The position numbers and the translations under genes were made by a program. From Falsochrobactrum shanghaiense (GTDB lineage: Bacteria; Pseudomonadota; Alphaproteobacteria; Rhizobiales; Rhizobiaceae), in contig NZ_QGDB01000003.1 of the NCBI RefSeq assembly GCF_003149535.1, forward strand, positions 372,001 through 436,000: a DNA stretch of 64,000 bases, read 5' to 3'. The notes beneath the pieces are model-generated. The model saw nothing but the letters and a program-made list of their open reading frames with translations. It had not been told where the DNA came from and did no database searches. Positions 39,375-39,973 of the stretch are shown here, piece by piece (position 1 is the stretch's first letter; every line of letters begins with the position of its first letter).

Positions 39375-39652
39375 TCCTGAATGTCGGCCTGATTGTCAGT
39401 ATCCCAGCGAATTAGGACTCCAGATACAGGAGAACATACAGGAAACCGAATTGCGGGCAAACAGATAGAGCAAATCACTTTGCGGCAATTTTACGCCGCG
39501 CCAGTCTAATCGATTTAGCGCGGCTTGCGCGGCCCGCAGGGCAGCTATGCAATACTGGCCCTACAAGCTTTGAAAACAACAGGTTATATAAGCGTCAACA
39601 CAGAAGATGAATTGAACCAACCACCAGTTACCAACCGAGAAGGAAAAGCATT
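39375..39652. promoter_or_regulatory. control region of the DUF1127/sRNA locus
   Basis: A 278-bp divergent intergenic region. A TATATA -10-like element is at 39585-39590, about 60 nt before the DUF1127 ATG; the -35 match is poor, as expected for an activated or alternative-sigma promoter. GCCGCGC (39495-39501) and GCGCGGC (39518-39524) form an inverted repeat further upstream. AGAAGGA at 39638-39644 is the ribosome binding site, 8 nt before the start codon. Confidence 0.4.
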
Positions 39653-39799
39653 ATGAACCTCTTCCGTTCTTATAACAACTGGCGCCGCTACCGTGAAACG
39701 GTCAACGAGCTGAGCCAGCTTTCGACCCGCGAACTCAACGATCTGGGTATCTCGCGCGCCGACATTCCTCATGTTGCACGGCAGTCCCGCCAGCGCTAA
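39653..39799 (+). CDS. DUF1127 micro-protein
   Basis: 48 aa, Arg-rich. The DUF1127 (YjiS-like) motif is complete: NNWRRYRETVNELSQLSTRELNDLGISRADIPHVAR. The ATG has a good Shine-Dalgarno (AGAAGGA, 8 nt). DUF1127 proteins in alphaproteobacteria act on small-RNA and RNA turnover; Rhodobacter CcaF1 is encoded directly upstream of the CcsR sRNAs. In Brucella abortus several tiny DUF1127 proteins are reported to be activated by the LysR regulator VtlR; whether this is one of them needs a locus-tag check. Here too four CUCCUCCC hairpins begin 15 bp after the stop codon, so mRNA and sRNAs are probably one transcript. Confidence 0.9.
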   Translation: MNLFRSYNNWRRYRETVNELSQLSTRELNDLGISRADIPHVARQSRQR

Positions 39800-39814
39800 T
39801 CAAATTTCAAATCA

Positions 39815-39846
39815 CCGGACCTGAATCCTCCTCCCATCAGGTCCGG
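39815..39846 (+). ncRNA. CUCCUCCC stem-loop 1
   Basis: CCGGACCTGA (39815-39824) pairs perfectly with TCAGGTCCGG (39837-39846). The 12-nt loop is ATCCTCCTCCCA. Confidence 0.85.
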
Positions 39847-39848
39847 CC

Positions 39849-39883
39849 ATCGCAAGAAACTCCTCCTCCCGGGATCTTGCGAT
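39849..39883 (+). ncRNA. CUCCUCCC stem-loop 2
   Basis: ATCGCAAGA (39849-39857) pairs perfectly with TCTTGCGAT (39875-39883). The 17-nt loop contains ACTCCTCCTCCCGGGA; its TCCCGGGA could pair on itself between two molecules. It is 2 nt after stem-loop 1. Confidence 0.85.
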
Positions 39884-39886
39884 AAC

Positions 39887-39922
39887 AAGGCCGGTCTCAC
39901 TCCCCTTTTGGATACCGGCCTT
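39887..39922 (+). ncRNA. stem-loop 3 with degenerate loop
   Basis: AAGGCCGGT (39887-39895) pairs perfectly with ACCGGCCTT (39914-39922). The 18-nt loop CTCACTCCCCTTTTGGAT keeps only a shortened pyrimidine motif, so its targets may differ. Confidence 0.75.
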
Positions 39923-39927
39923 ACAAT

Positions 39928-39973
39928 AATGGCATCCGTCGCTCTCCTCCCGCGACGGATGCCATTTGTTTTT
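39928..39973 (+). ncRNA. CUCCUCCC stem-loop 4 and terminator
   Basis: AATGGCATCCGTCG (39928-39941) pairs with CGACGGATGCCATT (39953-39966), a 14-bp stem with loop CTCTCCTCCCG, followed by TTGTTTTT. It is at once the fourth sRNA unit and the Rho-independent terminator of the locus. Confidence 0.85.

What the first reader, a model, noticed from the sequence alone, without database searches (positions are those of the whole stretch)
39653..39973. DUF1127 micro-gene fused to four CUCCUCCC hairpin RNAs: a Brucella CcsR / cuckoo RNA locus
Seen: a 48-aa DUF1127 ORF (39653-39799) with a good Shine-Dalgarno, then four back-to-back perfect stem-loops (39815-39846, 39849-39883, 39887-39922, 39928-39966) with unrelated stems and pyrimidine loops; three carry CUCCUCCC-type anti-Shine-Dalgarno motifs. 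The spacing (2-5 nt between hairpins) and the terminal T-run imply one precursor cut into four sRNAs. Known: R. sphaeroides has the same order, with the DUF1127 protein CcaF1 and the stress-induced sRNAs CcsR1-4, and cuckoo RNAs are defined by such loops. In Brucella, DUF1127 mini-proteins are linked to the VtlR regulator. Inferred: this locus couples a small RNA-turnover protein to a set of sRNAs that repress or sponge ribosome binding sites, possibly in response to stress or host signals.
Basis: partly seen in the sequence, partly recalled or inferred. Interest (0 to 1): 0.92.

Follow-up and report, generated by a model that had tools for sequence, protein, structure and literature searches.

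The report
Small protein gene with sRNA hairpins
A tiny gene is followed by four RNA hairpins, three of whose loops imitate the ribosome's own mRNA-finding sequence; it is a good example of an already described kind of bacterial protein-plus-small-RNA operon, and its control region points to a known regulator of host interaction.

Summary
In detail: a 48-aa DUF1127 ORF (39653-39799) and four perfect hairpins at the stated places. Three of the four loops carry CCUCCUCCC or CUCCUCCC; hairpin 3 has lost it. Hairpins 2-4 match Rfam RF02344 (ar14; 67.7 bits, cut-off 58.8), the family of the sRNA NfeR1. Rfam CcsR1 is not reached (16.9 of 65.3). Stems covary across 21 loci. DUF1127 followed by such hairpins is widespread (63 of 80 DUF1127-selected loci) and in print as the 'CIN1 locus' (PMC10253847, passages). 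What I add: the published VtlR box lies before the DUF1127 gene here and in 59 of 80 relatives (8 of 480 control stretches); its 12-mer core occurs only twice in the genome, before both DUF1127-ar14 operons; DUF1127-linked arrays almost never have a box of their own (1 of 38). Best model: one VtlR/LsrB-type promoter makes a precursor that is both mRNA and several anti-Shine-Dalgarno sRNAs. The organism is Brucellaceae, closest to Falsochrobactrum among the named loci fetched, not shown to be Brucella. New member of a known kind. No RNA data were available.

The parts
39526..39551 (.). VtlR/LsrB-type operator: degenerate TGCG-N6-GCAG (39526-39539; published LsrB motif TGCA-N6-GCAT) overlapping a full match to the published VtlR box GCAT-N3-TG-N3-T on the minus strand (39538-39550)
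   Evidence: consensus sequences from PMC7486931 and PMC10746234 (passages). VtlR box in 59 of 80 relatives against 8 of 480 control stretches.
39561..39589 (+). Putative promoter CTACAA-N17-TTATAT (39561-39566 and 39584-39589); start of transcription inferred near 39596
   Evidence: Read by eye; in the 16 rows of alignment A1 the bases T-A-T-x-T of the second hexamer are invariant. Not found by the sigma-70 consensus scan.
39653..39799 (+). DUF1127 ORF, 48 aa (stop codon included in the coordinates)
   Evidence: 94% identical over 48 aa to the Falsochrobactrum tianjinense locus L012.
39815..39846 (+). Hairpin 1, 10-bp stem, loop AUCCUCCUCCCA; almost wholly outside the Rfam ar14 match
   Evidence: 6 of 10 pairs with changes on both sides in A2.
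39849..39883 (+). Hairpin 2, 9-bp stem, loop with CCUCCUCCC; first hairpin of ar14
   Evidence: 4 of 9 pairs with changes on both sides.
39887..39922 (+). Hairpin 3, 9-bp stem; loop motif lost here (CUCACUCCCC) while 16 of 21 aligned rows keep CCUCCUCCC
   Evidence: 3 of 9 pairs with changes on both sides.
39928..39973 (+). Hairpin 4, 15-bp stem with loop UCUCCUCCC, plus T-rich tail: probable Rho-independent terminator that also shows an anti-Shine-Dalgarno loop
   Evidence: 3 of 15 pairs with changes on both sides. Terminator role inferred.
39845..39967 (+). Rfam RF02344 (ar14) match, 67.7 bits, model 1-123 of 123

Best explanation
This is a DUF1127-ar14 operon (the arrangement called CIN1 in print). 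A VtlR/LsrB-type LysR regulator most likely activates one promoter before the DUF1127 gene (inferred from the box). The transcript probably ends at hairpin 4 and is both the mRNA of a 48-aa protein and the precursor of stable hairpin sRNAs (architecture shown by sequence and comparison; transcription not shown). An RNase, by analogy RNase E with help from the DUF1127 protein as for CcaF1, cuts in the short linkers (inferred). The released hairpins show CUCCUCCC-type loops that copy the anti-Shine-Dalgarno tail of 16S rRNA and pair with strong GGGAGGA-type ribosome binding sites, lowering translation, above all of transport genes (pairing potential and an enrichment of such genes shown in sequence; repression inferred from NfeR1).
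For: RF02344 match over the cut-off. Covariation on 21 rows: 95.5% of 894 cells paired and 16 of 43 pairs with changes on both sides, against 28.7-40.9% and 0-4 when the partners are slid. aSD hairpins within 500 nt after the stop in 63 of 80 DUF1127-selected loci; 1 of 80 reverse-complement and 0 of 160 upstream control stretches. In the reverse direction, 38 of 60 ar14 loci have a DUF1127 ORF less than 500 nt upstream, in 20 of the 38 with a gap of 0-12 nt; a VtlR box lies between stop and array in 1 of 38 but in the 200 nt before the DUF1127 domain in 20 of 38, whereas 12 of 22 arrays without an upstream DUF1127 have a box at -50 to -100. Boxes within 450 nt of these arrays: 39 of 60 against 20 of 240 control stretches. 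GCAGCTATGCAA occurs only twice in the 3.84-Mb genome, before both DUF1127-ar14 operons; read backwards it occurs once. Genes of this genome with GGGAGGA-N4-11-ATG: solute-binding proteins in 11 of 41 against 3 of 42 with AAAGGAG (one-sided p 0.017), ABC or TRAP transporter parts in 16 of 41 against 5 of 42 (p 0.004) (underlying). Passages of PMC10746234 report LsrB activation and aSD repression for NfeR1; passages of PMC10253847 and PMC8625941 report RNase E and CcaF1 in CcsR maturation.
Against: No transcript data of any kind were available. 17 of 80 DUF1127-selected loci have no such hairpins within 500 nt, 21 of 80 have no box, and 18 of 38 DUF1127-linked arrays have no box in the 200 nt before the DUF1127 domain. 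The window lacks TGCA-N6-GCAT and even TGCA-N6-GCA. Hairpin 3 has lost its motif, so not all hairpins need be active. Of the covariation measures, 'further pair types' was the weakest (14 of 500 shuffles as high). The target enrichment was p 0.09 on the first batch and 0.098 on the second alone; only the pooled set is significant, and transport genes may have strong ribosome binding sites for other reasons. In A. tumefaciens, small DUF1127 proteins are reported to act on PhoR by protein contact (PMC12501420, abstract and passages), so the protein may have nothing to do with the RNAs.
Confidence: 0.78

Rival explanations
1. The array has its own promoter in the 3' part of the DUF1127 gene or the untranslated region, like stand-alone NfeR1, and the DUF1127 gene is only a neighbour.
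For: Stand-alone ar14 copies exist in the same genome (L002, L003) with a box at -57 and -54. The ar14 match here begins at 39845, where such a start could lie; a processed end would look the same.
Against: In DUF1127-linked copies a box lies between stop and array in 1 of 38 but before the DUF1127 domain in 20 of 38; 20 of 38 gaps are 0-12 nt.
Confidence: 0.1
2. The hairpins only end and stabilise the DUF1127 mRNA; they do not act in trans.
For: Hairpin 4 with its T-run is a plausible terminator, and 3' hairpins can protect mRNAs (general knowledge).
Against: Stems vary with compensatory changes while most loops keep CCUCCUCCC (20, 19, 16 and 16 of 21 rows for hairpins 1-4), the reverse of what a mere terminator needs; the same module stands alone elsewhere; NfeR1 acts in trans (PMC10746234, passages).
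Confidence: 0.06
3. The loops act as decoys or sponges (for a protein, or for many mRNAs at once) rather than repressing chosen targets; array length sets the dose.
For: Many like loops per transcript, and an array of five ar14 modules with 15 TCCTCCC motifs in L057; PMC10746234 (passages) calls the three aSD motifs of NfeR1 functionally redundant.
Against: NfeR1 represses defined mRNAs (PMC10746234, PMC8844928, passages); transport genes are enriched among matching ribosome binding sites.
Confidence: 0.12
4. It is a CcsR family member controlled by RpoH, as in R. sphaeroides.
For: Same gene order; weak similarity to RF02791 (16.9 bits).
Against: Far below the gathering score of 65.3; the promoter region has a VtlR box and a 17-nt-spaced hexamer pair like that of NfeR1. 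An RpoH promoter was not searched for.
Confidence: 0.04

Closest known systems
ar14 sRNA family, Rfam RF02344 (NfeR1/Smr14C2; SmelA075 and SmelA099 of Sinorhizobium meliloti have the same loop motif)
   Same: Rows of hairpins with CCUCCUCCC loops and variable stems; score over the cut-off; several copies per genome; LsrB/VtlR-type operator; three- and four-hairpin forms both described (PMC3927594, passages).
   Different: NfeR1 is reported with its own promoter next to the sRNA; here the promoter lies before a DUF1127 gene. One hairpin stands upstream of the ar14 match, and hairpin 3 has lost its motif.
ccaF1-CcsR1-4 of Rhodobacter sphaeroides / CIN1 locus
   Same: DUF1127 ORF followed by several sRNA hairpins and a terminator (PMC10253847, passages and legend); Rfam names CcsR1 after its CCUCCUCCC motif.
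   Different: Rfam CcsR1 cut-off not met; protein 48 aa against 71 aa; promoter region of VtlR/LsrB type, where ccaF1 is reported with RpoHI/RpoHII.
VtlR-activated small-protein genes (BAB1_0914 and BAB2_0512 of B. abortus; Atu1667 of A. tumefaciens)
   Same: Short protein gene with a VtlR box upstream. PMC7486931 (passages) leaves open whether Atu1667 works as a protein or as an sRNA.
   Different: In the passages I read they are described as small-protein genes or a putative sRNA, without mention of aSD hairpins. I could not check those loci by name.

Membership tests
Rfam RF02344 ar14 | Score over the curated gathering threshold | tested here: met
   67.7 bits against 58.8, full model 1-123
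Rfam RF02344 ar14 | Three hairpins, each with CCUCCUCCC unpaired | tested here: inconclusive
   Three hairpins yes; motif full in hairpin 2, CUCCUCCC in hairpin 4, lost in hairpin 3
Rfam RF02344 ar14 | LsrB motif TGCA-N6-GCAT about 60-72 nt before the start (as reported for NfeR1) | tested here: inconclusive
   Exact motif absent; degenerate TGCG-N6-GCAG at -70 to -57 of an inferred start; TGCA-N6-GCA in 59 of 80 relatives, strict form in 25 of 80
Rfam RF02791 CcsR1 | Score over the gathering threshold | tested here: not met
   16.9 bits against 65.3
CIN1 locus (DUF1127 with CcsR-like sRNAs) | Short DUF1127 ORF followed directly by aSD hairpins | tested here: met
   the name and description from PMC10253847 (passages), the original paper not held
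CIN1 locus (DUF1127 with CcsR-like sRNAs) | Co-transcription and RNase E processing | not testable with these tools
   No RNA data; box and gap positions in relatives favour co-transcription
Cuckoo RNA family (thermodynamic matcher definition) | Match to the published matcher | not tested
   Paper PMC4615179 not held
PF06568 DUF1127 | Score over the curated cut-off | tested here: met
   64.9 bits against 23.3
VtlR/LsrB regulon | Published box GCAT-N3-TG-N3-T in the promoter region | tested here: met
   Minus strand, 39538-39550
VtlR/LsrB regulon | Binding by the regulator and loss of expression in its mutant | not testable with these tools
   Experiment needed

The most novel reading that the evidence does not exclude
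The VtlR/LsrB-activated 'small protein' genes of the Rhizobiales are first of all precursors of anti-Shine-Dalgarno hairpin sRNAs. The regulator works through two classes of such RNAs, AbcR and DUF1127-ar14, and studies that restored or removed only the coding sequence would have missed the active part.
Probability: 0.35. Interest if true: 0.62.

Novelty: new member of a known kind. Interest (0 to 1): 0.4.

Why it matters
VtlR/LsrB matters for host interaction in several Rhizobiales (PMC7486931, PMC10746234, PMC12595884, passages). PMC12595884 reports that overexpressing its known targets, three DUF1127 genes and AbcR2, one at a time did not restore the vtlR mutant. If such DUF1127 transcripts also carry aSD sRNAs, a little-considered output of the regulator becomes testable in harmless model rhizobia. 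Tandem arrays (five ar14 modules behind one DUF1127 gene in L057, three in L049 and L080) offer a natural dose series.

Tried and rejected
(1) Self-immunity: I asked whether DUF1127 leaders avoid pairing with the loops. They do not stand out: mean duplex energy -4.84 in 80 leaders against -3.94 in 58 uncurated ORF starts of the window; GGAGG or GAGGA in 4 of 80 against 1 of 58. Dropped.

(2) The 15-mer VtlR motif of PMC12595884 with up to three mismatches is not significant in the window on its own (6 hits, 4.4 expected); the shorter consensus, its conservation and its position carry the claim.

(3) CcsR membership rejected. (4) Promoter and terminator scans gave nothing useful.

(5) Target test. 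First batch: 8 of 22 against 3 of 21 solute-binding proteins, p 0.09; I also computed 4 of 21 (p 0.18), counting L200, which Pfam shows to be an FMN-dependent dehydrogenase. I then extended it, so the pooled p values are not from one planned test; the second batch alone was 3 of 19 against 0 of 21 (p 0.098). Of 65 GGGAGGA sites 62 were examined: two were second ATGs of the same site and one was the antisense of hairpin 4. Of 82 control sites 58 were examined. ORFs under 60 aa were dropped (21 of 62; 16 of 58). Three control ORFs (L241, L245, L246) were not sent to Pfam and counted as not transport. The Pfam limit was E 1e-3 and 1e-5. 'Solute-binding' and 'transporter part' are my classing of the Pfam names.

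(6) The 61 loci put to searches are four of the window's genome plus 57 best matches per genome, so biased to high scores; L108 was dropped as too short, leaving 60. Of the 22 arrays without upstream DUF1127, 9 have one downstream.

(7) PMC12772402 (passages) on Brucella sRNAs holds no VtlR, DUF1127 or NfeR, so it could not be tied to this locus.

Full report
Observation. The region folds far better than shuffles (z -9.4), and the only two CCTCCTCCC sites of the window lie in these loops. Hairpin 3 lacks the motif though its 9-bp stem is intact. Among 21 aligned arrays, CCTCCTCCC is kept in 20, 19, 16 and 16 rows for hairpins 1-4. In hairpin 3, L014, L020 and L022 keep TCCTCCC, L027 has CTCCTCCTCC, and only the window has no TCCTCC.

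Family. Rfam gives RF02344 (ar14) over hairpins 2-4 with 67.7 bits, over the cut-off. ar7 (41.7 of 60) and CcsR1 (16.9 of 65.3) stay below theirs. Hairpin 1 lies before the ar14 match. PMC3927594 (passages) describes three- and four-hairpin forms, SmelA075 and SmelA099, with CCUCCUCCC loops, so a fourth hairpin is known too. PMC7143759 (passages) places NfeR1 in the ar14 family and that family in Rhizobiaceae, Brucellaceae and Phyllobacteriaceae.

Spread. ar14 matches (E up to 0.001) occur in 60 of 61 genomes of the family draw (56 over the cut-off) and 103 of 297 of the order draw (55 over the cut-off), the window's genome included; both searches used stricter filters that lose weak matches. 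The window's genome has five matches, four over the cut-off, and six DUF1127 matches, four over the cut-off. Two of its DUF1127 genes stand before ar14: the window locus and C12:617081. A third strong one (L008) has no box in 300 nt upstream, no aSD hairpin and no ar14 match.

Organism. The closest named DUF1127 locus of the 80 kept is Falsochrobactrum tianjinense L012 (94% over 48 aa; 79.9% DNA identity over 3,166 nt). The genome has 3.84 Mb in 47 contigs. It is most likely a Brucellaceae member. The tool warns that records very near the window's genome may be left out, so the species stays open and Brucella sensu stricto is not shown.

Association. Of 80 named loci selected by the DUF1127 protein alone (the best 80 of 172 confirmed), 63 have at least one aSD hairpin within 500 nt after the stop and 46 have three or more; controls are 1 of 80 and 0 of 160. 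trmFO, which follows the window locus, lies within 1.5 kb in 51 of 80. In the reverse direction, 47 of 57 loci selected by ar14 score have a DUF1127 ORF somewhere in the fetched stretch, 3 kb as a rule. [quoted passage not shown]

Structure as evidence. On 21 aligned arrays, 95.5% of cells pair and 16 of 43 pairs show changes on both sides (52 cells; shuffles 8.1 pairs and 16.3 cells; none of 500 as high). 'Further pair types' is weaker (33 against 29.5; 14 of 500). Sliding the partners by 1-3 columns leaves 28.7-40.9% and 0-4 pairs. All four helices have pairs with changes on both sides (6, 4, 3 and 3). The structure was taken from the window row, which favours percent paired.

Promoter. The published VtlR box GCAT-N3-TG-N3-T (PMC7486931, passages) is present on the minus strand at 39538-39550, and within 300 nt upstream of DUF1127 in 59 of 80 relatives against 8 of 480 control stretches. 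Just before it lies TGCG-N6-GCAG, a degenerate form of the LsrB motif TGCA-N6-GCAT that PMC10746234 (passages) places at -72 to -60 of NfeR1; here it would be at -70 to -57 if transcription starts near 39596 (inferred). TGCA-N6-GCA is found in 59 of 80 relatives against 24 of 480 control stretches, the strict form in 25 of 80; the window has neither. CTACAA-N17-TTATAT resembles the NfeR1 promoter CTTAGAC-N17-CTATAT quoted in PMC10746234. The 12-mer GCAGCTATGCAA occurs exactly twice in the genome, before both DUF1127-ar14 operons; the pattern read backwards occurs once.

One transcript. Among 60 ar14 loci, 38 have DUF1127 upstream (gap 0-12 nt in 20); a box lies between stop and array in 1 of 38 and in the 200 nt before the DUF1127 domain in 20 of 38. 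Of the 22 without upstream DUF1127, 12 have a box at -50 to -100. Within 450 nt, 39 of 60 have a box against 20 of 240 control stretches. Where a box is found it thus stays with the promoter, and the DUF1127 gene sits between promoter and array. This favours processing from one precursor, as reported for CcsR1-4 with RNase E and CcaF1 (PMC8625941 and PMC10253847, passages).

Targets. In this genome GGGAGGA-N4-11-ATG occurs 65 times (8 for the pattern read backwards) and AAAGGAG-N4-11-ATG 82 times (30 backwards). Of 41 ORFs of 60 aa or more behind the former, 11 are solute-binding proteins and 16 are ABC or TRAP transporter parts in all; of 42 behind the latter, 3 and 5 (tests). This fits NfeR1, whose two first validated targets encode periplasmic binding proteins (PMC8844928, PMC10746234, passages). 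Loops 1, 2 and 4 pair with a GGGAGGAG site at -18.0, -18.0 and -17.5 kcal/mol, the decayed loop 3 at -12.9.

What may be new. In PMC7486931 (passages) Atu1667, orthologue of BAB1_0914 and BAB2_0512, is a direct VtlR target, and it is 'unknown' whether it encodes a small protein or works as an sRNA. PMC12595884 (passages) reports that overexpressing three DUF1127 genes or AbcR2 one at a time did not restore a vtlR mutant, and cites deletions of these genes without effect on virulence. How far those clones and deletions reach into the downstream RNA I did not see; deletions that removed the arrays too without effect would speak against the bold reading. Neither text mentions aSD hairpins in the passages read. 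A search for papers holding at least two of VtlR, NfeR1, DUF1127, LsrB, CcsR and cuckoo RNA listed 14 papers; by its term counts none holds VtlR with CcsR or cuckoo RNA, one holds VtlR with NfeR1 (PMC8844928), and two hold VtlR with DUF1127 (PMC12595884, PMC11975290). The library is open-access only: the 2015 cuckoo paper, the 2021 CcaF1 paper and the 2015 CcsR paper are not held, and Eisfeld 2021, Kraus 2020, Sheehan 2015 and Budnick 2018 I did not look up. The link may therefore already be in print. That the window locus is the BAB1_0914 orthologue is my inference, not tested.

Verdict. An ordinary, well-conserved instance of a known protein-sRNA operon, with a clear regulatory link worth testing.

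Noticed in passing
L057:1659-2308: Fulvimarina manganoxydans has five ar14 matches in tandem behind one DUF1127 gene, with 15 TCCTCCC motifs and 129-130-nt spacing in the last four modules; L049 and L080 have three matches (12 loci scanned).
   Followed up: partly
window:39887-39922: The loop of hairpin 3 has lost the anti-Shine-Dalgarno motif while the stem is kept; 16 of 21 aligned rows keep CCTCCTCCC there.
   Followed up: partly
window:39607-39615: ATG-AAT-TGA, a two-codon ORF starting 46 nt before the DUF1127 start; present within 80 nt upstream in 18 of 80 relatives. An S. meliloti DUF1127 gene is controlled through an upstream ORF (PMC12218461, abstract and passages).
   Followed up: partly
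L126, L129, L136, L145: These loci hold three DUF1127 ORFs each near ar14 matches, as if the unit had been duplicated.
   Followed up: no
L043 and L031: Records titled Bacillus subtilis SK6B4 and MAG Xylophilus sp. carry loci like those of Pseudochrobactrum (L040) and Brucella pseudogrignonensis (L032): possibly mislabelled or contaminated assemblies.
   Followed up: no
L001:791-879 and L085:767-858: Glycine riboswitch near the second DUF1127-ar14 operon of the genome, and a fluoride riboswitch in the Shinella locus.
   Followed up: no
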